From positions 1-21,695 of the forward strand of contig LWCA01000626.1 of the NCBI GenBank assembly GCA_001642005.1: a stretch of 21,695 nt of DNA. The letters are read 5' to 3'. The stretch is from Intoshia linei (taxonomy: Eukaryota; Orthonectida; Rhopaluridae). The notes beneath the pieces are model-generated. The model did not search any database and had not been told where the DNA came from. It worked only from the letters and a program-made list of their open reading frames with translations. The position numbers and the translations under genes are program-made. Below, piece after piece: positions 715 to 21,695 of this stretch (the first letter of the stretch is position 1; every line of letters begins with the position of its first letter).

Positions 715-2691
715 AATAATTGCATTGAACTTGAATGGCAACTAAATAGATTGAAAATTCAATTAAGACAAAAGGTATGTAAAAGTTTTTAATGTGGTTT
801 TAAACTGAAACATAACATAGTGGAGGGGTCCTCATCCTCGTTTCGGAGGGAATCATTTTCCCACGACATTATAAAATAGTTACCTCGATGAAATGTAAGT
901 TTTTATGAATTAAATTTCATTTTTAACCCATATACTCCCAGTGTGACCATATGGTCACACAACATTAAATTTATAAAAACACGTATCAAATTGAAACAAA
1001 GTTAATTAAATATGAAAAATTAAATTAATTAGTATATTATATAACATTCGAGTATATTAGTTATGAGTTTTCACCGATTAGCCTCCTGTGTCACTGACAG
1101 TGGGCGAAAATGATTTTTCAAAGAAAAAAAATTCACTGAAAAAATTTTTTATATTTTTTGTTAAAGTTGTGATAACTGAATTTAATGAATACCATATGAT
1201 GAATTCATGTATTGGCTACAATTTGATGAAATAATTAGGTATATTGACATGCGGTTTTATATATACACGCTTTTATTTGCCTTATTCTCCTAATGTGAAC
1301 ATATGGAATGTGAAATAACTCCATAACTACAATTGGTAATTACCTAAAATTATATATGGTGAAAAATAGGCAAGTATGTATTAACTTCCCAAATTTTTGG
1401 AACAATTTGCCTGGGAGTATGTGGGTTAATATCATATTGTCAAATTTATAATAAATTGTAATGTTAACTATAAATTCTAACAGATTAAAAATTATTGAAA
1501 AACTTTCCCAAAATATATTTTTAAAATTCTAAGACTTTTTTAATTTCAAAAATAAAAGGGTCATTTAGGTTTTTAACCCTGAAGGCCTCAATTTCTAACA
1601 ATAGAATTGTCTAAAAAACATCACACCCGAAAAACTGCACCATTAATTGGGTTTATTTAAATTCTATGACACGTACGTTTTATTTAAATGGTAACACTAG
1701 TGGCGGATCTAGGATTTTCAGCCAGAGGGGCGAAATACTTATTAGGGGGCTAAACGCATATAATGTATTTAAATTGGAATTTTTATATTTTGTTTATTAA
1801 TTGTTTCTATCTATAATAATAATTTTTTTTCTATATAAGTAAAAGTGGATTTTGGAATGATGGATATTGAAAAAATTTAAAATTAAAGACATTTTTTCAT
1901 AATGACTGAAACTCCAAACGTATGGTAACATATACATAAAACGTAAATGAATGGGTCTTAGAAAATTTTTTTAATTTTTCACAATGTTAAATACACAAAT
2001 TAAAATATTTTAGGGCACATTTGTTACGCCAGGGGGCGGCTGTCCCCCTGCCCCACCTAGACCCGCTACTGGGTAACACACACATATAAAATGTAGATTA
2101 TACCTTCGATTTTGCTAAATACGTTAATTTTTAATAAATAAAATAATAAATTTTAATAAATAATATGAATATTTTTAATAAAGTAATTTTAATATAAAAA
2201 CTTTTATCAATTGTATAATTATTAATTTGACACCAAACTAAAAATTTTTATAACTTTTTTATAATAATTGGAACATGCCTTACATAAAGTTCAAACATTT
2301 ATTTATTTTAATTAATTTACTAAATATTTTTTAGGATGAAGAATTTGACGAACAAAAGGAATTATTGGAAAAATTGAAAAATGAACGTAATAATTTATCT
2401 GAAGTAGTAAGACAAGAATGGGCGGATCGTTTAATTTCATTGGAACATGAAATTGAAGAATTAAAATCTTCGAAATGTGAATTGATCGCCAAAATTAACC
2501 AAATGAAAATGAATTATGAAGCAAAAATTGAAAAAATTGAAAATGATCAAAATGTTGAAATTAGTGAAATTAATGACCGAGTTAAAGAAGGGATTATAGA
2601 AAAAAATATGGTGATTAAAAATATGAAGAATGAATATAATACCCTCTTGAAACGTACAGAATATTTTGAATCTTGCTCTTATAAAAATTAA
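715..2691 (+). CDS. 3' exons of a coiled-coil, centrosomal CEP131/AZI1-like protein (partial)
   Basis: Two exons, join(715-774, 2335-2691), both phase 0. The first is bounded by TTTAG and AAG|GTATGT and encodes 20 residues starting NNCIELEWQL. The second follows TTTTTTAG and encodes 118 residues ending CSYKN and TAA. The joined 138 residues are almost pure amphipathic coiled coil, rich in E, K, N and I. The order VRQEWADRLISLE, then EIEELKSS, then INDRVKEGIIEKN resembles my recollection of the C-terminal coiled coil of the centriolar-satellite/ciliary protein CEP131 (AZI1; Drosophila dilatory). That identification is by eye and tentative; other long coiled-coil proteins are possible. The 5' part lies outside the window. 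The intron between the exons (775-2334) hosts at least three repeats, and an AATAAA lies 29 nt after the stop. Confidence 0.6.
927..1425. mobile_element. piggyBac-like MITE with TTAA target duplication
   Basis: A 499-bp element flanked by TTAA on both sides (923-926 and 1426-1429). The left end reads CCCATATACTCCCAG and the right end, reverse-complemented, CCCACATACTCCCAG: 15 bp with one mismatch, beginning with CCC as piggyBac superfamily ends do. Just inside the left end is a perfect 20-bp palindrome (941-960, GTGTGACCATATGGTCACAC). A related partial motif (AATGTGAACATATGG) recurs near 1291-1305. No transposase ORF is present, so this is non-autonomous. It sits in an intron. Confidence 0.75.
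1440..1690 (+). repeat. 134-bp-period interspersed repeat, copy 1
   Basis: Two degenerate units are recognised by the anchor TTCTA(A/T)G at 1528 and 1662, exactly 134 bp apart. Each is followed by an A-rich stretch and, in the first, the family phrase GGGTCATTTAGGTTTTTAACCCTGAAGG. The edges are approximate. It ends where the hAT MITE begins. Confidence 0.55.
1698..2071. mobile_element. hAT MITE with 8-bp target-site duplication
   Basis: A 374-bp element with terminal inverted repeats TAGTGGCGGATCTAGG (left) and CAGTAGCGGGTCTAGG (right end, reverse complement). It is flanked by a perfect 8-bp direct repeat GGTAACAC (1690-1697 and 2072-2079), the target-duplication length of hAT transposons. 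The interior is AT-rich with no transposase coding, so it was mobilised in trans. It lies in the intron of the coiled-coil gene. Confidence 0.8.
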
Positions 2692-5128: not shown

Positions 5129-8100
5129 ACTATAATATAATATGTTGTTGTATTATTAAAAATATATATTATATACAATTTAAAAGGGTGAATACCATGG
5201 GTATTCCTTTTACATCCCTTTTTTTAAATTTTAGAATTTTAATGACGTATATAGCAGATTATGTGTATTTTTGAAAAAATATGAATCCGATGAACTAAGT
5301 TTGTCATTTTCAATTTTTATTTTAATCGAAATATTTGAAAAATATTGGTTAATAATATATTAAACATTATTTTTCATCGGGAATGCGTACATTTCTCGAG
5401 TTGAACTTTTGTATTTATATCAACTGGAATAAGCTCTATCAGAATAATTTTTTTTTTAATTTTCGGACCGTTTATTATTTCACATATTTTGTTTTAATAA
5501 AATATTTCGGAAAAAAAATATATGAATACTAAAATGCTTTTTTGACCGTGAAGTCGTCCACTTATTCGTATTGAAATTTTTTGTGTGTGTTAACAGGATA
5601 CAACTGTACCACCTGTAAATTTATGATAGTGTTTATGATTTTCAAATCCGTACCAGCGTATATATTTTTTTAAATTCCTCAATTCGTTTGATTTTCAAAA
5701 AAAACAAACAATTTGGGTTTTTGACCAGTTAGATGTGAGTTTGGGAAGTTGAAATTTATTTTGCGAACACCCCCGGAAAAAAACTGTATTTGAAATGTGG
5801 AGTTTATAAAATTTTAAGAAGGGTAGTTATTTAAATAAAGTGGAACACACACACACAAAACAAAATCGCGTATCACATTATATAAGTAAGGATGACAAAA
5901 TATGTTTTCGACACGCATATTATTAAGATCTAAATATTTTTTTTAATATTGAAATTTACAAGTGATTAAATCTGATTTCTTTTGATTTTTTATTGTTTAG
6001 ATTATAGTTTTTTCTATTGTTTTAGCATCTTTAATTGATTTACCCCGTTTGATTGTATATTATTTTTAAATTAATTAATAGCGCATTTATTTTGGGTTTT
6101 AAAGACGTTTGAATTCCTTATAATTTAAATTCAAATTTTTCATCGCAATATGGCAGTTGTATCCAAAATCGTGACGAGAGAAATTATATTGATAGGTTTT
6201 ATTAAGTACTAGCTTGTCTGTTTGGTACTTACTGCAAACTGTACGTATCTCTACCGAGGGCGGATGTTTTTATTACTGTTCTGCAATTTTATCCGTTCCA
6301 CAATCAAAATAAGTACCTTTGGATGGTGCAAATCGTAATTCGGACCGTATTGCAGAAATTTAGTTTGTATAAATATTTTTTGACAGTTGGCGACATCTAT
6401 TATATTATCTATTCTTTTGTTGGAATGATTTGGGACATCTCATATATAAATTTATATACAGTGGTCGCTCCTTAAATTGAAAAGTATCTAAATACACTCA
6501 GCGATCACTTTACATGGTAAGAATATACATTCCCGCTCTTGAACATGAACACAATTTATTGTGATTTTTCTCATAAATTTGTTGTAATTTAATTAACTTT
6601 CTATATAATTTAAAAAATTTATAAGAAAATGTGAATTCTTCAATTTGAACAATTCATTTATTTCAAAATTTTGATTTTTCTCATAAATTACACAATAAAT
6701 ATAGTATGAAATAATTAACTACAGTGTTCAATCTCTAAATCTTGAACACCATCCATTTTTTTGCAGTTAGTGTTCAATTTAGAGAGCGATCACTGTATAC
6801 TCATAAATTTACTGAACGGTATGTAGCTAACAGACTACCTATTGCACATGTATATTGTAGAGTTTACATAAATCTTACTTATGAATACAATGTAATTCTA
6901 ATCATTATAACCAAACCATTATAATGGATGGAAATTTCGTGTTAAATGGTTGCGGCATTGTCAAATTGTAAACTTAATTGGACTTCATGTTGCATATATG
7001 CTTACATATATTGCATATAATATGCATAATGTCTAAACCAGTGTTTCTCAACCTTTTTTACTGCTCGGAACCCTTATGAAATTTCAAAAAATCGCGGTAC
7101 CTAAAAGCATGATCAAAAATTTTTCATCGCATGAAACAATATGATTTTTAATTAAAAAATTAATAACACACGGAATTTAGCCGGTAAAACCAGTTGCCTC
7201 CCTCACACAATGAAGAAGCATCCAGGCCCGTGAGAGATAACTTTTTAGTTAAATATCATTATAAAGAGGTAAGTAACTTATTTAAACCCCTGAGTTCCGC
7301 GGAAATCAGGGTTGAGAACCACTTTTCTAAACTTTTATTCGTGTGCCCAATAAGAGTATATTTAGTAAGAGTTTACCAATAAGTTTAATGTTTGTACGGT
7401 AGTGTTTTCAAATGATATTCCTTCATTATAAATTGGGCAATGATAAACTGGTGTATAAACTTTTTTACTTTTTTTATATAGAGTCACTTAGAGTTTTATC
7501 AAAAGTCATTTGCCATATAAGGTTGATAAAATGGTCGCTTTCTTCAATGTTTTCTCAAACTTTTTAACTAAAATATTTGTCAAATTAAATACGTTCTTTA
7601 GAATTTTGGTAATTTGAATTTTAACTTATATTTAATTCTCGGTAAAATTTTGTGGACAAATTGGAATATTTGATTTTAAAAATTATACAAACGAATATAG
7701 AAACTATAGTTCTGCACCCGTGTCCGAACCAAAATCTGAAGTGCGTGATTAAATAATGTTGCAGAGTTTTTCGTGTTTTTGATTTTCGTGTCTACTTGTA
7801 TTTTAAGTGAATATTATTGAACAATTACATAATTATAAACGTCCGCCCTGGTATAAGTAAAACTATAAAATGTATATTGTTTGTAAGCAGTGCAAAACAT
7901 GCAAGCTAGTGAAATTATATCTAAAAATATGAAATTAAATCATTTTCACACAGATACAAACAAAAATTAAAGCAATATAGAGAGTTTAGCTGGATAAAAG
8001 AAAAATTAATAAAAGACGAAATTATAGACAAATATTTTGGAAACACAAAAAACCTTAAAAGCACCACATATTCTCAAAATAACACATTCCTCGACCAAAA

Positions 8101-9819: not shown

Positions 9820-11202
9820 CAGTGCGCGATACTTGAATAGGGACAAAAAGTTTTTTTAGATTACAAGAAATAAAATAGATTAAGTTAAAATAAATATAGA
9901 CACAAACATGAATTAATGATATATTGAGACAATACAATAATATTGTCGTTGCATAGCAACTTAGTTACATAATAATATGTAAAATATGAAAATAAGTGTA
10001 TTTTTACCTTGAATAGACACTTGAATAGGGACAATTATTTAAAATATTAATAATTAACAGATAAACAATGGGTCGAGGAAAAAGACTAACCAAGTTTAAA
10101 ATGTGTAAAGCTGAAAGTCTCCTCGCAACTGGAAAAAGTATTAGGTATATTGCATTTATATTAAATAGGAGTAAATCCGTAATTTTTAACTACTCAAAAT
10201 CAAAGTCTATCTACGGCAAAATAATAAAGGTAGGACAAAAATGGCAATCAGTAAGAGTGATGTTCGACGATTGTTACGCCATAGTAGTAACAATAAAGGT
10301 GAATCAGCGGCACAATTAAAGTAAAATATGAATTGAATAGCATCAAAAAGAACAATCCAACTTAATTTGAAAAAAAATGGTAGAATTAACTCCAAAAATA
10401 AAGTTTTGCCTAGGTTACTAAAACTCCATAAAGTGTGCGATTAGATTTTGCTAAAAAATATCACATGTGGTGAGAGGAATGGCGAAATGTCATCTTTTCC
10501 GTTGAAAAGAAATTTAATCTGGATGGTCCTGATGGATTGCAGTATTATTGGCATGATATTAAAAAGGATGATGCATTGTTTTCCACTCGTGCACATGGAG
10601 GCGGTTTAATAATGGGCGCGTTCGGTTATAACGGAAAGGTAAATTTAGAAGTAATTAATGGACGTTTAAATTCAAGTGGATACATAAAAATGTTAAAAAA
10701 ATCGAATCTTAAACATATCGGTTCTACAATTGGAGGATCAAGTTGGATATTTCAGCAAGATAACGCACCAATACACGTTTCCAAAATATCCAAAAGTTGG
10801 TTTGAAAATAATAATATAAATGTTCTAAATTGGCCCTCTCTATCTCCTGACCTAAACCCTATAGAGAATATATGGGGCATTCTTGCACGTCAGGTTTATA
10901 AAAATGAAAAACAATGATTCCGTACAAGACTTGAAAATAGGCATTATTTCTGCATGGAATTAAATGTTTTTCAAAGAGTAGTGAACTCTATGCTTAACAG
11001 AATGTTTGAACTAGCATAATCCAAATGGAAAAAAATACCATATTAAAGATTTTCTGAATTAACAATTTTAATGAACCACATTGTTGGCCTTAACCATCTA
11101 GTTAAATTTCAGTTTGTAAAATTAAATTATTATTATTATTTAGTTAAATATTTGTATACTTAACTGTTTTTATTTTTTTCCCTATTCAAGTGACGAGCAC
11201 AG
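9820..11202 (+). mobile_element. Degenerate Tc1 (DD34E) transposon
   Basis: A 1383-bp element between TA dinucleotides (9818-9819 and 11203-11204). The left end is CAGTGCGCGATACTTGAATA and the right end, reverse-complemented, CTGTGCTCGTCACTTGAATA: four mismatches in 20, then GGGA in both. The sequence ACTTGAATAGGGACAA of the left end (9831-9846) recurs at 10019-10034 in the same orientation, like the inner transposase-binding repeat of IR/DR-type Tc1 elements. I did not find an inner repeat on the right. The transposase is broken, so the element is inactive by itself. Confidence 0.85.
10068..11019 (+). pseudogene. Tc1 transposase pseudogene
   Basis: Begins MGRGKRLTKF, the usual start of an insect Tc1 transposase, with the helix-turn-helix SIRYIAFILNRSKSVIFNY. 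The frame shifts near 10218, where the second DNA-binding part continues as AISKSDVRRLLR. Stops or shifts follow near 10322, 10333, 10441 and 10472. The catalytic part resumes at about 10495 and is open from 10537 to 10917. The first catalytic Asp (normally in FSDEKKFN) is Val here (FSVEKKFN). The second Asp (QQDNAPIH) and the Glu (DLNPIEN) remain, with 34 residues between them, giving DD34E. A VW-type dipeptide is missing before GAF (GLIMGAF, near 10610). The tail is shifted again near 10917 and ends at TAA 11017-11019. Confidence 0.9.
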
Positions 11203-11590: not shown

Positions 11591-14500
11591 ATGGAAATTT
11601 ATATTTTTATAAACATTATATTTGCAGTAGTTTGGAGCGAGTGCCCTAAATCAAGAATTGTATCTGTTGAACAACACGATGCGAATTATTTTGCCATTGT
11701 TCAATTTCCATTTACAACAAATAAATCGAATATTGAAATAACTGGTTATAAATTATATTTTAAATAAAAATATAAAAAGTTTAGTGTGTATTTGGTAGAT
11801 TTTGTTTATTTACATTTTTTTGTATTCATTTATCAATTTTATTTAGAAAAGTCAAATATTATGTATGAATCATTAAAATGGACACTGTATTTGTTAAATT
11901 CAAAAATTGATAAATATAATAATATTACTTATTCTGATTATTATATTCCTGGAATTAAATTAGGTAAATGTATAATGTAATTAGCTTGTGCGTTTAATAC
12001 AGAATATTCAGTGTATATTATACACTGTAATAACCTGATAATAACCTAACATGATGTAAAAAAACCCAACTTTTTCAAATTAGAATTTAAAATACAGTAG
12101 GACTCATTTTTTTAATTTAAACTTACATTTAAACAACAGAGGATACAGTGATCTAAAAATTTAGTTTATCAACAATTTATATTAAAATCCACTTTTACGA
12201 AATGTTAGATAAATTTTTTCATTACAGATGTAGCATCACAAACTTAATTCAAAAAATTTATTTCAACTTTTAGAAAAATCATAAAAATTTAATTATTGAA
12301 AAAACTTTCCATGTGACCCATGGGTTGTACATTTTTATATTTAGGAATTATTAAAATGAATACACATGGAAATATTACTGAAATCAAGAAAAATAATTTG
12401 GAAATTTCAGAAAACAATAAAAATGAATGTCAAATACTTGACAAAACAAAAATTATGGGTATTTAATCATTTAGAATTGGAGTCAACAGTCCAAAATCTT
12501 TCTTCATAATTATTCCTGATAATTTATAATTTTTTTTCTGGTGTAGTTATTCTTTGAAATTAGAAATTAATATAAACCAGTGATTCTTAGGGTGGGACAT
12601 ATCGTCCCTTAGAGGTCACATTCAAAATTTTAGGAGTCATAGGAAGAGAGAATCAGTATTGAGAAGCGTAGAGTAGATTTTTAAAGCACAATTATAAGCA
12701 AGAACGTTAAAAATTCATCAATAAGAGCATTGAAATAACAGCCTGAATAATAGCAGCTGAATCATGCTTCATTTCGTGTTACACAAATCTAATCTAGAGG
12801 AATCACAGAAAATTTAATTTATAACAAGGGCGCATGTTCCAAAACATTGAGAATCATTGTTTTATTCAACGATATAGTATTGTGTATATTAATTATTTAG
12901 GAATGATATTTTATGAAAATAATTTAAATACAAAAGAAATTGTAAAATTTTGTGAGTCAGCGAAATTTGCATGTTTTAATTTGAATGATTTCAATTATGA
13001 TGCAAATTATACTATATCGTTTTCACCTCAATTGGAAAATTATCTCCAGGTTAATTATTTACAATTCTTAATTGCTTATATATGGGCTTATCATAACTTT
13101 TAATAAAAAACCTTACCATTTGTTTATAATGTATTTATATAATTTCTATATTTATTGTATACCTATAGACTGAACGTAACTTCATACAGACCATTAAATT
13201 TCCTACCCAGGGTAGTTGGCGTAGCCAAATTTATGTATCCTTATATTGTAATTTATAATTTTTTATTATACACTGTATATCATATTTAATCATTCCAAAT
13301 AGGCTACACTAATGATATTAAGGAAACACAAATATAAAAAACTAAATATATTGCATCACAGAGATTCAACCGACTTGGAGGATGGAAATACTATTTTGAT
13401 TAAAAAAATAATTTATAAAGAAAGTAATATTAATGTGAATTATTCCACTTTAATTTTATTTTGTTAACATTTGTGTAAAGAATCGTAAAAAGAATTAACC
13501 TTAATTAAATATGATATACAATAATGTATATTCAGTGTCTGCTTTCGATGAGTAAAAAATATCAATTTTGTATTAGTAATCAAGGGCAGATTCAAGAGGT
13601 TAGTTAATGGGATGCGAGCGAAGCGAGCAATATATTTAACTTCTCCGAAGGAAAAAATTTTTTTAGTTTGATTTTAAAGTGTCTCTTTTAATTTCATTAA
13701 ATAATCCTAAATCAATTAGGTCCAGTCTTCTTGGATGAAGTATAGCAAATTCATTAACCAAACTTTAAATATCAAAATTATAGTCACACATCTTTTTTTT
13801 AATTTTTTTTAAAAAATTTAGGGGTGCAACTGCACCTTCTTCACCCCTTGAATCCGCCACTGGTAATTATTATTAACGGAATTAGCACTTTAGAAACTTA
13901 TTTCGGATAAATTTTACCAATATTGCAAAGCATTGTAATAAATTTAACAATGAAAATAACAAAGTTGTACTTTATAGTACATCGTTGTTGTGGTTTTTTA
14001 CTAAAATTTTGTACCAAGTGATTTTCAATTTTTTGAAAATGAGTATTTGAGAATGAAAAATTGCGTAGAAATGAAAACAAATCCGCCCATATTTCTTTAT
14101 TGAAAATGTGCAGACATTCACTGCACATTTTTGTCTGAAATTGCCGGACGATTATTTACTTTTTCATTTTTAATTTTAACCCAACATTTGAAAAATATTG
14201 GTTGATAATATATTAAAAATTATTTTTCACCGGGAGTGCGTAGATTTCTGGGGTTGAAATTTTGCATTTATATTAACTGGAATAAGCTCTATCAGAATAA
14301 TTTTTTTTTAATTTTTGAACCGTTAATTATTTCAAATTTTTTGTTTTAATAAAATAGTTTCGAAATAAAAAACAATGAATACTAAATTGCTTTTTTGACC
14401 GTGAACGCGTTACTTTTTCAGATTGAAATTGTTTTGTGTGTGTTAACTGGATATAACTGTGTCATCTTTAAATTTTTTTTAACTTCTAGGGTTGTTTTCA

Positions 14501-17500
14501 TTTAAAAAAAAAGGTAATCTAGGTTTTTGACGGTGAAAATTATCTTTTTTGAGGTTATCAATTATGATAATCCTCATGAATTTAAGTAATAACAAAATAA
14601 TTTATATTGTATAAAATTCTAGGACATTCTTAATTTATACAAAAAAGGGTAATTTGTGGTTTTGGCCATGAAGATATAAGATTTTAAAATTAAAAATTAT
14701 CATAATATTGATGAATTTAAACGTGATATCAGAATATGTATTTTTGTATATTTCTAGGACGGGTTTGAATATAAAAAAAAGGACAATTAGGGTTTTTGAC
14801 CTTGAAGGACTCAATTTCTGAATATGATATTTGCGCTATAACCACATTTTCGAAAAACTGTAATAGTAATATGGAATTTTTAAAACTGGAATCCTATTAC
14901 TTTCTTAAATAAATGAAATCAAACAGACAAACAGACATTCATTTTTTCAATAATTCAGTAAGGCAGTGCTTTCCAACCGGTGTGTCGCCAATTATCTCCA
15001 GATGTGTCACCAAACTTTTTAAAATTTATTTTTTAAAATTTTTGGTTCTAAATAGCATCAATAAGATTTTCAAATGAAAATAAAATTTTTTCATAACTAA
15101 AATAAAGTTATTTTTCACTAAATTTGATTAAATTCATCACCAAAATGATTATTTTACAGTCAAAATCAATATATAAAGCATCAAATTAGTCATCAAATAC
15201 ATCTTTTCATATCGTTTTTGAAATAATGAAAAATTAATTTAAATCTCGTTTATACAAATTTAATTTTTTTTAATAACATTACATATATAATTATTTTTAA
15301 TCTATAGTGGCGCAGTAATTTTATATTTATTTTGAGATTATTATTAGAAAAAATTTCGTTTCAACGAATCAATAGTATATTTTTAGATTGGTGTGTCGCA
15401 AAAAGTTATTTAGATTGAAATGTTTGTTGCCAACCAAAATGGGTTGGAAAGCACTGCAGTAAGGTATCAAATTCTAAACATCTCGATCGATATTTAGCTT
15501 TAATTTACATTTCATCTAAAATTCAGTTGAGTAATATTAATTAAAATGTGAAAGGGTTAATAATTAATTTGAAATTATATTTATATTTATTATTTAAATT
15601 TTAAAATAATGACCATAAATACTTATTGTATCGTAAAAAAGTATTGGTAAAGTTCCAAATACGTAAACATTTTTTTAGTGTCTAGAATCTAGACTCTAGA
15701 CTTGACTTTTCACTATAAAATATTTTGTTTGAATTAAAATTTAGATATTGAAATTTCAAATTACATTGAAATAGATGACGTGAATTATATATTGGATACA
15801 ATTGAATACATAAAAAATAATAAAGATAAATTTTTTATCAAATTAATAAACATGGATAATATTGATAACATTACCATAAAACTAGACATTGAAAATTTAA
15901 AATTAGCAATATCACTAAACAACATTGGTTATTTAATAAAAAACCAAAAAGATGAAACACCAATATTATTTATAGGAGAAAAAAAAGCATTGATAAACAT
16001 GTTAAACATATTATCAAACATTTTCAACATAATTGGAGGTTCTCACGGAATCAAAAATGATGAAGAATTGATAAAAAAATATAAAATAATACATATTCCA
16101 TTAACATTAAATTATGACATTAATACAAACACAAAAATACCATTGAAAACGTTAAAACAATTGGAAATTGATTCAAATTCATATTCAAATTTAATGAAAA
16201 TAAAATACAACTATGACATATTAACAATATTTCCATTAATAAAATCATTTCCCTCGTTCAACAAAAATTGGAATTTAAATTATATGAATCTTGTCATGAA
16301 TCCAAGTAAAAACTTGATTGACACAATATTGAAAGAATCTGAATATTTATTTAATTTTGACAATGTAAATTTAAAAATTTTTACAAACTATACAAATTTA
16401 TCTACACACGATAAATTCAAGTTTAAAATGTTGGTGTACAAATACTGTATTCTACCAAATTGCAAAGTTGAATCAAACATAATGATCGAAAGAGCTATTT
16501 CATCTCTAATGACATTATCAAAAGCTTTATTGTTTGCATATCAAGATTTATGCATCAATAAAATAATTCACGATAATGCACCCCTAATAAGTTATTTAGA
16601 TCAAATATTCGATAAATATAGTATTAATAAAGAAAGAATAGAAATTGGAAATGATTTAAATTTAATGAATCTATTTGATTTCGATTTTGCATATGAAAAA
16701 ATATCAAATATTTATCAATGTAACCAAAAATTGAATATGCAGACATTTTTATTTCATAAATACATTTCACAAATGCACTTTTCATTTGGAACATATGAAC
16801 GAGTTTATTATTCAAATTTTTTTACTAGTGCAGTCATTTCTTCAAATCAAAAATTTAAATTTCCAAATTATAATAATCATCGATTTAAATACATGAAATT
16901 TAATTTGTATTTTTATAGCATGTTGGAAGAATATTTTAATCAAAAAATATCAAACCATACTCATAAATTAATTATTAATCATTTGAATAAAAGATTCAAG
17001 GAATATCAATATGATAAAAAAGAATCGGTGGATAATGTTATAAAATTTAATGATACTTTTTTCAATTATCAACTCAAAATATTTTTAAAATATTTTTATT
17101 CTCTTCAAATTTATGTTGAAAATTTACAAAATCAATTTTTTACGTTTTGGTTTGGTATTATTCATTATTCTTTCAACTATTCAAGTGATATCAATTTGGT
17201 TCAAAATTTTACTTCATTGGATTATGATTTTGAAAAGGTATGTTTTATTCATTTTTTTTTAATTTTTAATTAACTCATGAGTCATGTAGACTAAAAAAAG
17301 CACTTTTGAATAGATAAAACGAGTAGAAAAATAATAAAATGTATCATACTCATTTTAATGATAAAATATATAGCTAAGTGCATTAGATTTATGACATAAT
17401 CGTGCTAAAACTGTATTTTTGATATTTTAATTGTATCTGAATATGTTAAAAATCATTCATATTTGAAAAAAATCTCATGCATTTAATTTCGAGCATCGAT

Positions 17501-20500
17501 AAAATAAAAAGAGCAATAATAAAATGTTATAGTTTTAACTTATATAATGCTCTACGCGATTTTTGTTTGTGTGTGTGTTCCACTTTATTAAAATAACTAC
17601 CAGTTTTAGAATTTTATAAAGACCACATTTCATATACGTTTTTTGCGGGAAGTATAATAAGATAAATTTCAACCTCCCAAACTGACATCTTACCGGTCAA
17701 AAATCCCAATTGTCGATCTTTTTGAAAATCAAACGAATTGGAGAATTTAAAAAATTATATACGCTGATACCGATTTTAAAATCATAAACATTATCATAAA
17801 TTTAAATTTAAAAAAAATTATATCTTTCAAAGCCAAAACCACAAATTACCCTTCTTTTTTTAATGAAAACAGTTAGAATTTAAAAAAATTTTCAATCCGA
17901 ATAAGTGACAACTTCACGGTCAAAAAACATTTTAGTATTCATATATTTTTTTTCGAAATATTTTATTAAAACAAAAAATGTTGAATAATTTACAGGTCCG
18001 AAAATTAAAAAAAAAAATTATTCTGATAGAACTTATTCCAGTTGATATAAATACGAAAATTAAAAAAAAATTCTTCTGATAGAGCTTATTCCAGTTAATA
18101 TATATACAAAATTTTAACCTCAGAAATCTACGCATTCCCGGTGAAAAATAATTTTTAATATATTATCAACCAATATTTTTCAAATATTTCGATTAAAATA
18201 TTAATTGAAAATGTAAATATTGATCTTACAATTTCAAAAAAAATGTGCAGTGAACGTCTACACATTTCCAATAATGAAATATGGGTAAAAATCTATATAA
18301 TTCATTCTTTCGCAATTTTTAAATTTCAAATTCTCATTTTCAAATCATTTTTAATAAAATTTAAATAGAAACTACAACAAAACTAAAATAAAATAAATGG
18401 AATTTTCCCCATAGTAATACCCTTGTTAACTGATTTTTATTTTTTAAATAAAAACCATTAAATGTTCATATTTCTTGTAAATGTGAGTTTTTGAATGATG
18501 AATGACGAAGTAATATACACAAAACATTATCAACACACAGCAGTTCACAGCAGTTTTTTTGGGTCCAAGAAAAATTATATCAATTTTAAATTATTTACAG
18601 AAATAAAATAAAGTTAAAAATGATATTTCCTCAATGATAGTAATTATTTCTAATTAACTCATATCTTTTTTAATATCTATTAAAAATTTGATAAAAAATG
18701 TAATAAATTAACTTTTAATTATTAAAAAAATTATTTTATATTTATGATAGTCATTATAAATAGATTCTAGAGTTTTAGACCTAAACTTTTTATTAACGGA
18801 ATTTTTGGTTCATACAAATTCGTTAAGAAAAAATAAATAATTCAAAATTCCGTTAGTAAGGACTTGGACTGTATTAATATATATTAATTAATTGTAAATA
18901 ATAAATAATGAATTATTACATAGATTGGCTTAGCTAATTACCAATTAAAATTGAAACTAATAAACGAAGAAAAGATGGATATATTTACAAACTATTACGA
19001 ATACATCAATAAAGGATATCTGAATGAAATTTGTATGGAAGAATGGAAAAGATGTGAAATAATTGAAAATTTAAAAAGTCTATTAAATCACGTAACAGAA
19101 AATTTTGTAATAATGTATGGAGATTATTACATTCCGATAATATTAGAAAATGAAATTACAAAAAGTAAAAAATCTTTTTATCAAAATGAATTTAAAAATT
19201 TATCATCATTTTTAAATGAATCGCCGATAACTTACAAAAATTTTGATAATATTAATGAAAAAATAGATAGAGAATTGGGAATATTTCCAGTGTCAATAAT
19301 TGGTGAATTATATGAAAAGTTAATAAATTATAATTGGATATTTAAAAATAAAGGACAGAATAAAACTATTGGTTTAATCGTTTTCATGTTGGATAAATCT
19401 GAAATTGAAATAGTTTTAAACATGTATAACAATTATCTAAATAGTATAAAAGAAAAAAAGGTATTTTCAAGAAAATGGTTATTTGTGACACGAAACATGT
19501 ACAATATGAATTTAAGTGAAATAAATTTGGAAATTTATGAACAAAAAAACATAGAATTGCAAGTATATGATATATTTAGTGGTTCATTCGTTAATTATGT
19601 CCCTTTTGAACCACCTGAACTTAAAAATGATGACTTCGATTACATTTCAAAATGGTATACTAGATTTACAACTATTTTAACAAAATTTAAAGAAACTGGT
19701 TCAATTTATATTTCTCAATATCAACACAATGTTGAAATGTCCATGTTTGATGATGTTTCATCTTTTAGTTGTGAATGGCTAAAAAATTCGATATTTAAAA
19801 ATTTGACTCAAGATTTGAATGTTTGTATTTTAGACAATATTAACACGTCAATTAACAAAATTAACTGCAATATTCAACATGTTGCAACTTTTGAAAAATC
19901 AAATTTTCACCAAAATTTGATAGATATTTTATCAAAGTATCAATCTTGTCACTCACTCAATTTGACAATTTTATATATTTTACCACAATTGAATGCAAGC
20001 ATTAATTTTAGTATGTCTAGTTTCAATTTCACCAAATATACCAATCATAGTGTGAAATTAATTCATTTTGTCTATAAGACAAAGTATTCTCAACTACAAT
20101 ATATTTTAAATATATTTAACAAATTATCACAACTCAAAAATGACCAATTAAATGGAAATCGATTTAATTCTACTGAACAAACTTTAAACAATCAACAATA
20201 TAAAAACTTTTCAATTGATAATTTGAATTATAGAAAATATATTCATTTAAATCTTCACAATTGGAATTTTAATAATTGGGTTTACAAGTACATTTCCAAT
20301 GTTGATACTCTCTATTTTCAAATGTTTACAGATAATTTTAATGTTGAATATCTATATTATATTTTTTCTGAAAATTCAACCGATTTGAACAAATCGAATG
20401 GTTCAATAAATGTACCCCATTTAAATAGTTCTAAATATCGTGATTTAAATACTTTCAATTTTCAAAATTTTCATTTATATATCACAAACTACAATAAATC

Positions 20501-20519
20501 TAGTATCATCAGTCGAGAG
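11591..20519 (+). CDS. Secreted protein with tandem class C GPCR-like Venus flytrap domains (3' incomplete)
   Basis: Proposed join(11591-11744, 11847-11963, 12345-12458, 12901-13049, 13303-13462, 15745-17237, 18924-20519), 1261 codons, open across all joins. Exon phases are 1,1,1,0,1,0,0 and every intron is GT...AG. Residues 1-16 (MEIYIFINIIFAVVWS) form a clear signal peptide. Landmarks in the order of an ANF_receptor/mGluR ligand domain follow: strand FAIVQFPF (34-41, cf. ILGGLFPV); helix ESLKWTLYLLN (59-69, cf. EAMLYALDQIN); YYIPGIKLG (83-91, cf. LLPNITLG); GMIFYENNLNTKEIVKF (129-145); the lobe 2 helix and strand LQATLMILRKHKYKKLNIL (177-195); PILFIG (304-309); and SKALLFAYQDLC (490-501, cf. 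AHALHAMHKDLC). A second, weaker set follows from about residue 614. The comparison is by eye from family knowledge. The sequence is rich in N, K, I and F. The last exon ends at a donor, GAG|GTATAT, so the 3' end lies outside. Confidence 0.6.
12578..12859. mobile_element. hAT-like MITE in intron 3 of the flytrap-like gene
   Basis: The left end is CAGTGATTCTTAGGG and the right end, reverse-complemented, CAATGATTCTCAATG, giving an 11-12-bp imperfect inverted repeat typical of hAT ends. The interior carries GGGACATATCGTCCC-like sequence. I see no convincing target duplication, so it is an old insertion. It stops 41 bp before the exon 4 acceptor. Confidence 0.5.
13581..13862. mobile_element. hAT MITE in intron 5
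   Basis: A 282-bp element with left end CAAGGGCAGATTCAAG and right end (reverse complement) CAGTGGCGGATTCAAG: 13 of 16 identical, of the same terminal type as the element at 1698-2071. Inside are GATGCGAGCGAAGCGAGC and GGGGTGCAACTGCACC. The flanking sequences (TTAGTAAT and GTAATTAT) share only GTAAT, so the target duplication is decayed. Confidence 0.65.
13985..14945 (+). repeat. 134-bp-period interspersed repeat, copy 5 (near full length)
   Basis: The most complete + strand copy. It starts with TTGTTGTGGTTTTTTAC, then GAAAATGAGTATTTGAGAATG, CCCATATTTCTTTATTG and the GTGCAGACATTCACTGCAC segment near 14106. Next come the shared head module (TTGAAAAATATTGG, CACCGGGAGTGCGTAG, CTGGAATAAGCTCTATC) and GACCGTGAACGCG at 14398. 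Tandem units follow with TTCTAGG at 14484, 14618 and 14752, exactly 134 bp apart twice, and a decayed anchor near 14886. It ends in CAAACAGACAAACAGACA. No conserved coding frame is shared with the other copies. Confidence 0.7.
14964..15456. mobile_element. Intact hAT MITE with perfect TIRs and 8-bp target duplication
   Basis: A 493-bp element with identical 15-bp terminal inverted repeats CAGTGCTTTCCAACC / GGTTGGAAAGCACTG and a perfect 8-bp target duplication CAGTAAGG (14956-14963 and 15457-15464). The subterminal phrase GGTGTGTCGC occurs in the same orientation near both ends (about 14979 and 15390). There is no transposase. Perfect ends suggest a fairly recent insertion; it lies in intron 5, 288 bp before the exon 6 acceptor. 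Confidence 0.9.
15745..17237 (+). CDS. Exon 6: lobe 2 of flytrap module 1 and start of module 2
   Basis: This is a 1493-nt exon, residues 232-729 of the assembled protein. The frame is open from the acceptor TTTAG (15744); the GTG at 15780 is internal, not a start. The donor is AAG|GTATGT, and the reading frame past 17237 is intron read-through. Residues 304-330 (PILFIG...SHG) fit the strand-helix-strand of lobe 2 (in mGluR, VVCF...IGSDGW). SKALLFAYQDLC (490-501) and LISYLDQIFDKY (512-523) fit the domain's closing helices. From about residue 611 the landmarks restart: YMKFNLYFYSML, HKLIINHLNKRFKEY (638-652) and FWFGIIHYSF (699-708). No membrane helix, and only a handful of cysteines, so no cysteine-rich domain. 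Confidence 0.7.
17553..18385 (-). repeat. 134-bp-period interspersed repeat, copy 6 (inverted, near full length)
   Basis: An inverted copy in intron 6. The terminus CGCGATTTTTGTTTGTGTG...TTCCAC (17556-17586) matches the end of copy 2. Anchors (GAA of the reversed TTCTA) at 17609, 17743 and 17876 are 134 and 133 bp apart. The head module is reversed: CTTATTCCAGTTGATAT, CCCGGTGAAAAATAA, then TGCAGTGAACGTCTACACA at about 18245. A segment of about 57 bp with the TATCAACTGG...TCAGAA core is present twice in tandem (about 18001-18057 and 18056-18112). Confidence 0.7.
18768..18873. mobile_element. Small mariner-like MITE or terminal inverted-repeat remnant
   Basis: Perfect 12-bp inverted repeat TAACGGAATTTT (18794-18805) and AAAATTCCGTTA (18844-18855). 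Outward of these, the left end TAGAGTTTTAGACC and the right end (reverse complement) TACAGTCCAAGTCC are similar. A TA lies at each edge. It is only about 106 bp and lies 50 bp before the exon 7 acceptor. Confidence 0.5.
18924..20519 (+). CDS. Exon 7: remainder of flytrap module 2 and a possible third-module start
   Basis: This is a 1596-nt exon, residues 730-1261, phase 0 at both ends. The acceptor ACATAG|ATT (18923) keeps the frame with exon 6; TTAG at 18933 is an alternative acceptor but would change phase. The TTG at 18951 is internal. CEIIENLKSLLNHVTENFVI (773-792) with MYGD fits the lobe 2 entry helix and strand (in mGluR, QAKAMVDLLKHFNWTYV). IGLIVFMLDKSEIEIVLNMY (878-897) fits the next strand and helix and parallels PILFIG in exon 6. 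ELKNDDFDYIS (961-971) recalls IPGFDDYF. NLIDILSKYQSCHSLNLTI (1060-1078) parallels LISYLDQIFDKYS. The last 150 residues are not assigned. Translation past 20519 runs into intron and stops at 20594. Confidence 0.65.
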
Positions 20520-21000
20520 GTATATATTATTATGGCCATTATTGATAGTCTATTAACTCTTAGGCTCTACGAGCTATTTTTTAGCATAAAATGAAAATAT
20601 TTTACTAATAATAATTATAATATTAAGTGTTAAGTAAAAAACTTTAAATTAGGTGTATAACACTCAGTTGTTTTTCTAGAAGTAAAATCAATTTACAAGG
20701 TATTTAAATGACACTATCAAGTATATACATAAATTTGAATATAATTGATATTATGTCAGTCAGGGGTCGGCAACCAGTGGCCCACATAATACTTTTATGG
20801 GCCCATTGAGTAAATATTTAAATTATTTATTTTTAAATTTTTCAACTTTTAAACACATATTTAAAAATTTGTCTACTATAATTATAATCATTTTAATGTC
20901 AGCAAAATCGTTTAATTTATAAGCCAAAATGATGCTAAAATTGAGCCTTAAAATTTAAATTTGATGAAATATTTCATGATAAAATGGTAAAATCAGTTTT
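20520..21000. other. Probable intron or 3' region; solo hAT-like end at 20761
   Basis: Follows the GAG|GTATAT donor. CAGGGGTCGGCAACC at 20761-20775 is a classic hAT terminal repeat, followed by AGTGGCCCACA...TGGGCCCATTG. No matching right terminus is found in the window, so the element is truncated or its partner is lost. No further exon of the flytrap-like gene is recognised here. Confidence 0.45.
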
Positions 21001-21695
21001 TAATTAGGAATGCATTGATTTGTGGTGTTGAAATTTTTTATCTATATCAACTGGAATAAGCTGTATCAGAATAATTTTTTTTTTAAATTCTAGGACTATT
21101 AATTATATCAAATTTTTGTTATTAAAATAGTTACCAAATAAAAAAAACAAAAAACTTTTTTTATTTTTGAATAAAATGGTAATCTGTGGTTTTGACTCTG
21201 AAGATTATATGTAGAGATGAATTATATAGATTCTCACCCATATTTCTTTATTGGAAATGTGTAGACGTTCAATGCACATTTTTTTTGAAATTTTAAGATC
21301 AATATTTACATTTTCAATTTTTATTTTAATCGAAATATTTGAAAAATATTGGTTGATAATATATTAAAAATTATTTTTCACCGGGAATGCGTAGATTTCT
21401 GGGGTTGTATTTTTGTATTTATATCAACTGGAATAAGCTCTATCAGAATAATCGTTTTTTTTAATTTTCGAACAGTTAATTATTTCACATTTTTGGTTTT
21501 AATAAAATATTTTGGAAAAAAAATATATGAATACTAAAATGCCTTTTTGACCGTGAAGTCGTCACTTATTCGTATTGAAATTTTCTGTGTGTGTTAACAG
21601 GATACAACTATACCACCTGTAAAATATTTGAAATTCTAAGACTGTTTTCATTAAAAAAAGAAGGGTAATTTGTGGTTTTGGCCCTGAAGATGTAA
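21000..21695 (+). repeat. 134-bp-period interspersed repeat, copy 7 (partial plus full head; runs off the window)
   Basis: A first partial head (21008-21185: GGAATGCATTG, ATATCAACTGGAATAAG, GTGGTTTTGACTCTGAAG) is followed directly by a second, better preserved head from about 21205 (ATATAGATTCTCACCC, GTGTAGACGTTCAATGCAC, TTGAAAAATATTGG, CACCGGGAATGCGTAG, GACCGTGAAGTCGTC at 21550). One tandem-unit anchor, TTCTAAG, is at 21634. The copy continues past 21695. The short ORF at 21349-21537 is a by-product of this repeat. Confidence 0.65.

What the first reader, a model, noticed from the sequence alone, without database searches (positions are those of the whole stretch)
11591..20519. A highly diverged secreted protein with two tandem Venus flytrap (class C receptor-like) ligand domains
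Seven exons join in one 1261-codon frame starting with a signal peptide. The landmarks of the mGluR/ANF_receptor ligand domain occur in order and then recur: first strand (34 and about 614), helix A (59 and about 638), GxI turn of lobe 1 (129 and about 701), lobe 2 entry helix/strand (179 and 777), next strand-helix (304 and 879), closing helix (512 and 1060). Offsets are 548-598 throughout, as a domain duplication would give. I know of no standard insect class C receptor with two flytrap modules in tandem, so this could be a lineage-specific secreted binder or receptor family. The domain call rests on visual comparison in a low-complexity, AT-biased protein.
Basis: partly seen in the sequence, partly recalled or inferred. 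Interest (0 to 1): 0.8.

Follow-up and report, generated by a model that had tools for sequence, protein, structure and literature searches.

The report
Orphan secreted protein of an orthonectid
A tiny parasitic animal, the orthonectid Intoshia linei, carries a large, probably secreted protein with no relative found in the collections searched; its first part weakly resembles the ligand-binding part of glutamate-type receptors, but the proposed second copy of that module finds no consistent support.

Summary
The gene is real but not from an insect. The window is a whole contig of the orthonectid Intoshia linei; the locus is the deposited hypothetical protein A3Q56_04711 (1182 aa). The deposited model skips exons 4-6 (125 codons) and reads through the last donor to a stop. 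The two long exons are certainly coding; exons 4-6 are unproven. The N-terminus looks like a signal peptide, and N-glycosylation sequons are enriched in the C-terminal half. Two searches of 5.77 billion proteins, and own-genome searches, found only this locus. Pfam gives no ANF_receptor hit. Custom profiles give a weak signal in exons 1-3, at the expected lobe-1 position, and only with some profiles and scoring modes. The proposed second flytrap is at chance in nearly all tests, as is similarity between the halves. Six diverged flytraps from the same genome score far higher with the combined profile. AlphaFold without an alignment failed (pLDDT 32-35). Verdict: an orphan, probably secreted protein; one diverged flytrap-like module is possible, a tandem pair unsupported.

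The parts
11591..11744 (+). exon 1: start codon and signal-peptide-like N-terminus (model aa 1-51)
   Evidence: shared with deposited P0001; no codon-usage support
11847..11963 (+). exon 2 (aa 52-90), holds the IDKYN..IPGIKLG stretch that aligns to flytrap lobe 1
   Evidence: shared with P0001; lobe-1 alignment
12345..12458 (+). exon 3 (aa 91-128)
   Evidence: shared with P0001
12901..13049 (+). putative exon 4 (aa 129-178), absent from the deposited model
   Evidence: frame and phase compatible; codon usage borderline
   Evidence: frame and phase compatible; no codon-usage support
13303..13462 (+). putative exon 6 (aa 201-253), absent from the deposited model
   Evidence: frame and phase compatible; codon usage borderline
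15745..17237 (+). exon 7 (aa 254-751)
   Evidence: long open frame; shared with P0001
18924..20519 (+). exon 8 (aa 752-1283); lies within the sequon-rich C-terminal half
   Evidence: long open frame; shared with P0001
20520..20594 (+). read-through tail to the stop in the deposited model; hydrophobic but with D, R and E inside; alternatively intron after donor GAG|GTATAT

Best explanation
A lineage-restricted Intoshia linei gene, with no second copy found, encodes a probably secreted or cell-surface glycoprotein of about 1,180-1,307 residues, depending on splicing. Shown: the long coding exons, no relative in the searches made, sequon enrichment of the C-terminal half, and a weak lobe-1-like signal in exons 1-3. 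Inferred: the protein enters the secretory pathway by its N-terminal signal; its first ~570 residues derive from one Venus flytrap (ANF_receptor-type) ligand domain like those of the diverged class C-like genes in the same genome; it works as an extracellular binding module, two lobes closing on a small ligand, either free (decoy or carrier) or as the ectodomain of a receptor whose membrane part lies past the contig end. The exon-8 half is a glycosylated extension of unknown fold. I prefer this as the most specific mechanism; the catch-all rival without a flytrap has about the same odds.
For: Coding; deposited protein. Only itself among 7995 (E<=1) and 6547 (E<=10) scored candidates; own-genome searches find only this locus with exons 1-6 and exon 8 (E<=10) and exon 7 (E<=0.001). 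Sequons in aa 601-1283. Lobe-1 signal: hhalign against the mGluR profile aligns aa 72-110 (IDKYN..IPGIKLG) to template 98-133 (ID~IN..LpgvkLG); for aa 17-600 the score is reached by 0 of 30 and 7 of 200 shuffles, and against the combined profile by 0 of 60 (exons 1-6: 1 of 60). Own scoring, combined profile: exons 1-6, 5 of 300 local and 4 of 300 glocal; exons 1-3 local, 1 of 300; of 30 windows along the protein only the three within aa 1-308 rise clearly; exons 1-3 beat 120 of 120 decoy windows and 46 of 46 windows of exons 7-8. Diverged flytrap genes exist in the genome.
Against: No Pfam ANF_receptor hit. With the mGluR-only profile 2 of 120 decoy windows reach exons 1-3. Exons 1-3 fail the glocal test (196 of 300) and exons 4-6 alone show nothing (114 and 95 of 300). 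hhalign with the whole protein: 6 of 60. aa 17-600: 122 of 200 glocal and 24 of 200 local, mGluR-only; 57 and 159 of 300 against the four-sequence profile, 161 and 290 against the six-sequence one, 48 of 60 in hhalign against the latter; 15 and 29 of 200 chained. Exons 1-6 against those two profiles: 36, 251, 136 and 251 of 300. Earlier hmmsearch tests were negative. Six real I. linei flytraps score z 13-38 local with the combined profile, though relatives in it flatter them. AlphaFold pLDDT 32.5 and 34.7.
Confidence: 0.4

Rival explanations
1. A secreted orphan glycoprotein unrelated to Venus flytraps: a fast-evolving, orthonectid-specific protein whose flytrap resemblance comes from low-complexity, N/I/L/K-rich sequence and reading by eye. 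It would act outside the cell, for example at the parasite-host interface, through an unknown fold.
For: No family or homologue hit at standard thresholds; most custom tests of the first half and nearly all of the second at or near chance; rotated sequences score as well in the chained test.
Against: A weak, position-specific signal in exons 1-3 with the combined profile.
Confidence: 0.42
2. Two tandem flytraps: a duplicated ligand module, secreted or anchored.
For: Landmark order by eye; the low-confidence model of exon 8 alternates helices and strands, as any alpha/beta fold would; two overlapping mild glocal results against the four-sequence C337/C278/C453 profile (aa 600-1283, 7 of 300; exon 8, 13 of 300).
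Against: Second half at chance: hhalign 21 of 30, 31 of 60 and 14 of 60; mGluR-only glocal 34 and 37 of 200, local 135 and 154 of 200, with the reversed sequence scoring higher; combined profile 227 and 113 of 300; chained 149 and 151 of 200. No window beyond aa 308 rises clearly (lowest count 26 of 300 glocal, aa 456-693). The halves do not resemble each other beyond chance.
Confidence: 0.1
3. A truncated gene model (compatible with the others): the ectodomain of a receptor whose cysteine-rich region and membrane part lie past the contig end.
For: The window is the whole contig; it ends 1176 bases after exon 8, in a repeat; donor GAG|GTATAT at 20519; no AATAAA between the deposited stop and 21137.
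Against: No orphan seven-helix exon among the six 7tm_3 places listed: C847, C337, C278 and C934 have ectodomains of their own and the two on C619 belong to a GPR158-like gene; that list is a lower bound. The deposited model ends in frame at 20594.
Confidence: 0.2

Closest known systems
Class C GPCR ectodomains (PF01094 ANF_receptor), including the I. linei mGluR-like gene on C847
   Same: signal-like N-terminus; weak match to the ID~IN..LpgvkLG lobe-1 stretch at the expected place
   Different: no Pfam hit; no 7tm_3 match on this contig; more than twice the length of a flytrap domain
Diverged I. linei class C-like genes on C337 (two tandem copies), C278, C453, C934, C497
   Same: same genome; several short exons in the lobe-1 region in C934 and C497 (read by eye)
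   Different: they relate to PF01094 or PF00003, mostly below the curated cut-offs, or to each other; a C337 query did not return this locus and pooled profiles of the family give at most mild results
Receptor-type adenylate cyclases of Trypanosoma brucei
   Different: those have a transmembrane segment and a cyclase; here neither was seen and the second flytrap is unsupported

Membership tests
Venus flytrap / ANF_receptor (PF01094) | profile match over the curated cut-off | tested here: not met
   no PF01094 hit for the whole protein, its long exons or the pieces given
Venus flytrap / ANF_receptor (PF01094) | lobe-1 sequence pattern near the N-terminus | tested here: inconclusive
   exons 1-3, combined profile: local 1 of 300 shuffles but glocal 196 of 300; decoys 0 of 120 with the combined, 2 of 120 with the mGluR-only profile; hhalign 7 of 200; other tests at chance
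Venus flytrap / ANF_receptor (PF01094) | bilobed alpha/beta fold | tested here: inconclusive
   single-sequence AlphaFold of exons 8 and 7, pLDDT 32.5 and 34.7; no fold search was made on such models
Tandem flytrap protein | second flytrap domain | tested here: inconclusive
   no Pfam hit; at chance; mild exceptions (7 and 13 of 300); power limited
Tandem flytrap protein | halves resemble each other | tested here: not met
   13 of 200 and 27 of 200 shuffles reach the observed score
Class C GPCR | seven-helix domain (PF00003) in the same gene | tested here: not met
   none of the six own-genome places lies on this contig; the gene may run past the contig end
Secreted or surface glycoprotein | signal peptide and luminal glycosylation sites | tested here: inconclusive
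   N-terminus hydrophobic, cleavage-like VWS|EC by eye; sequons enriched in aa 601-1283 but not in aa 17-600 (8 against 8.3)

The most novel reading that the evidence does not exclude
An animal with a very reduced nervous system (recalled) has turned a class C receptor ectodomain into a very large secreted protein with two tandem flytraps, an architecture I do not recall from class C receptors of other animals, possibly used to bind host or conspecific signals.
Probability: 0.08. Interest if true: 0.7.

Novelty: new member of a known kind. Interest (0 to 1): 0.3.

Why it matters
Lineage-restricted secreted proteins are a common and mostly unexplained part of parasite genomes (recalled); this one is very large, and no second copy was found in a 34.65 Mb assembly. 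If its first half is a flytrap, it would extend the set of diverged class C-like genes seen here in I. linei, which bears on how a minimal nervous system senses its surroundings. The deposited gene model may also lack about 125 residues.

Tried and rejected
Rejected: (1) Insect origin: the deposited protein names Intoshia linei. (2) Internal duplication by local alignment. (3) Pfam hits to Arc capsid, ERp29, Thioredoxin_2, RVT_connect and Psg1, E 0.025 to 3.8, all below their cut-offs: noise. (4) C619 as the missing 3' part of the gene: it is GPR158-like. (5) A fold search on the two models was not run, since pLDDT 32-35 makes matches meaningless. (6) hmmsearch with an mGluR profile and with a six-sequence lobe-1 profile (aa 119-254 ranked 345th of 1993 scored, the reversed sequence 176th) gave no signal. 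(7) One search hit its time limit, so hhalign of exon 8 and of exons 1-6 against the six-sequence profile is missing. (8) Splice variants: exons 1-6 plus the start of 7 score 3 of 200 glocal and 6 of 200 local, the same without exon 5 4 and 8 of 200, the deposited splice 16 and 6 of 200; this does not decide between them. (9) Papers: A3Q56_04711 in 0 papers; some searches were listings; passages (12 of 14 places) of PMC6543705 mention 32 rhodopsin-family genes in I. linei and no iGluRs, and no class C receptor of I. linei; in PMC12249979 the words intron, gene models and splice do not occur.

Limits of the controls: the combined profile holds relatives of the six I. linei flytraps, so their leave-one-out scores are flattering. 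Power is limited elsewhere: with the mGluR-only profile C453 was at chance (64 and 87 of 200), C337a gave 2 of 30 in hhalign, and C497 was at chance against the four-sequence profile (165 and 211 of 300). The six flytraps were spliced by eye and some lack exons. The mGluR profile on uses 47 of the 63 proteins, chosen by length, plus C847. The 120 decoy windows come from 47 stop-free frames of both strands, not all coding, after frames of known flytraps and of this gene were dropped; 18 are shorter than 112 residues, and one (on C278) itself looks flytrap-like. About a dozen kinds of test were made; the exons 1-3 result is the best of them and is not corrected for that. Odds changed after re-checking: best explanation 0.42 to 0.40 and first rival 0.45 to 0.42, because of the decoy count with the mGluR-only profile and the failed glocal test of exons 1-3, and so that the exclusive readings sum below 1.
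Full report
Source. The window is contig C696 of an assembly of 34.65 Mb in 1319 contigs. A protein search returns only the deposited protein of this very locus, from a contig of the same 21695 bases: A3Q56_04711, hypothetical protein, Intoshia linei, 1182 aa, an orthonectid.

Gene model. Eight exons with GT..AG junctions and matching phases give 1283 codons from 11591 to 20519. The deposited model joins exon 3 to exon 7 and reads through the donor at 20519 to the stop ending at 20594. Exons 7 and 8 are certainly coding. Exons 4-6 are open and phase-compatible, but codon usage is borderline for 4 and 6 and unsupportive for 5; it does not support exon 1 either, which is in the deposited model. 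Profile scores of the splice variants do not decide between them.

Secretion. The N-terminus has a hydrophobic stretch followed by VWS|EC (by eye). N-X-S/T sequons number 30 in aa 17-1283 against 20.1+-3.9 in shuffles (21 of 2000 reach it); the excess lies in aa 601-1283 (22 against 11.8+-3.0, 1 of 2000), not in aa 17-600 (8 against 8.3). Selection for glycosylation is the simple reading for the second half.

Relatives. Two searches of 5.77 billion proteins, with aa 1-751 (E<=1) and aa 602-1283 (E<=10), found only the protein itself (1 hit each, among 7995 and 6547 scored candidates); they reach only relatives sharing short exact words. Own-genome searches with exons 1-6 and exon 8 (E<=10) and exon 7 (E<=0.001) found only this locus. 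The PDB gives three weak Arc hits for exons 1-7 (best E 0.68) and none for exon 8; NCBIfam gives none; Pfam gives only noise.

Flytraps elsewhere in the genome. PF01094 is over its cut-off only on C847, an mGluR-like gene, and weaker on C497 and C934. PF00003 and protein searches add C337 (two tandem copies), C278, C453 and C619. Spliced by eye, C934 reaches 55.1 bits for PF01094, C497 and C453 stay below the cut-off (22.7 and 16.6 bits), and C337 (first copy) and C278 match PF00003 below its cut-off (28.3 and 24.6 bits).

Test of the first half. I built an mGluR profile (47 of 63 proteins, plus C847) and a combined profile with the six diverged I. linei flytraps; with the latter, 6 of 6 leave-one-out positives exceed all 300 shuffles, local and glocal. 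For: hhalign against mGluR aligns aa 72-110 to the lobe-1 ID~IN..LG stretch; for aa 17-600 the score is reached by 0 of 30 and 7 of 200 shuffles, for the whole protein by 6 of 60, and with the combined profile by 0 of 60, exons 1-6 by 1 of 60. In my own scoring exons 1-6 give 5 of 300 local and 4 of 300 glocal with the combined profile; exons 1-3 give 1 of 300 local; of 30 windows along the protein only the three within aa 1-308 rise clearly (1 to 3 of 300 local, 0 to 13 of 300 glocal). Exons 1-3 score 35.8, against a maximum of 31.9 in 120 decoy windows and 25.1 in 46 windows of exons 7-8.

Against: exons 1-3 fail the glocal test (196 of 300) and exons 4-6 alone show nothing (114 and 95 of 300). 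With the mGluR-only profile 2 of 120 decoys reach exons 1-3, and aa 17-600 give 122 of 200 glocal and 24 of 200 local. Against the four-sequence and six-sequence I. linei profiles aa 17-600 give 57, 159, 161 and 290 of 300, exons 1-6 give 36, 251, 136 and 251 of 300, and hhalign 48 of 60. The chained test gives 15 and 29 of 200. Two hmmsearch tests were negative.

Test of the second half. At chance: 21 of 30; 31 of 60 and 14 of 60; 34 and 37 of 200 glocal, 135 and 154 of 200 local, the reversed sequence scoring higher; 227 and 113 of 300 combined, 213 and 82 of 300 six-sequence; 149 and 151 of 200 chained. The exceptions are glocal results against the four-sequence C337/C278/C453 profile: 7 of 300, and 13 of 300 for exon 8 alone. 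The two halves do not resemble each other beyond chance. AlphaFold without an alignment is uninformative.

End of the gene. The read-through tail is the most hydrophobic stretch of the protein but holds D, R and E. The contig ends in a repeat also present on C619, so exons past the end cannot be excluded; C619 itself carries a GPR158-like gene (GPR158_179_EC, 85.6 bits).

Judgement. A real, orphan, probably secreted glycoprotein. Whether its first half descends from a flytrap is close to even odds; a tandem pair is unlikely on present evidence. Precedent for two flytraps in one protein exists in trypanosome receptor adenylate cyclases (PMC6027212, passages).

Noticed in passing
G000 contigs C337 (L019, L020), C278 (L022), C453 (L039), C934 (L010, L023), C497 (L009): A set of diverged class C-like receptor genes in I. 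linei, with two tandem copies on C337; several stay below the Pfam cut-offs.
   Followed up: partly
L018 3235-5500 (C619): A GPR158/179-like gene: extracellular domain PF22572 at 85.6 bits, and 7tm_3 matches with stops inside when read across introns.
   Followed up: partly
L010 285-1043 (C934): End of what reads by eye as another class C seven-helix gene directly upstream of the C934 flytrap gene, suggesting a tandem pair there too.
   Followed up: no
L021 1423-1719, minus strand (C278 6423-6719): A 99-residue frame that scored high as a decoy and reads by eye like the lobe-1 exon of the C337-type genes; perhaps one more copy.
   Followed up: no
window 10065-10917: Remains of a Tc1/mariner-type transposon (type by eye); the frame 10474-10914 matches DDE_3 (58.9 bits).
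   Followed up: partly
window 20959-21695: Interspersed repeat; the last 479 bases match C619 at 89.6%. Similar stretches recur by eye near 5300-5900, 14060-14900 and 17560-18400.
   Followed up: partly
window 2335-2691: What looks like the last exon of a coiled-coil gene; only weak Pfam hits below cut-off.
   Followed up: partly
L008/L024 (C847): An mGluR-like gene: flytrap exons over the cut-off and a 148.5-bit 7tm_3 exon.
   Followed up: partly
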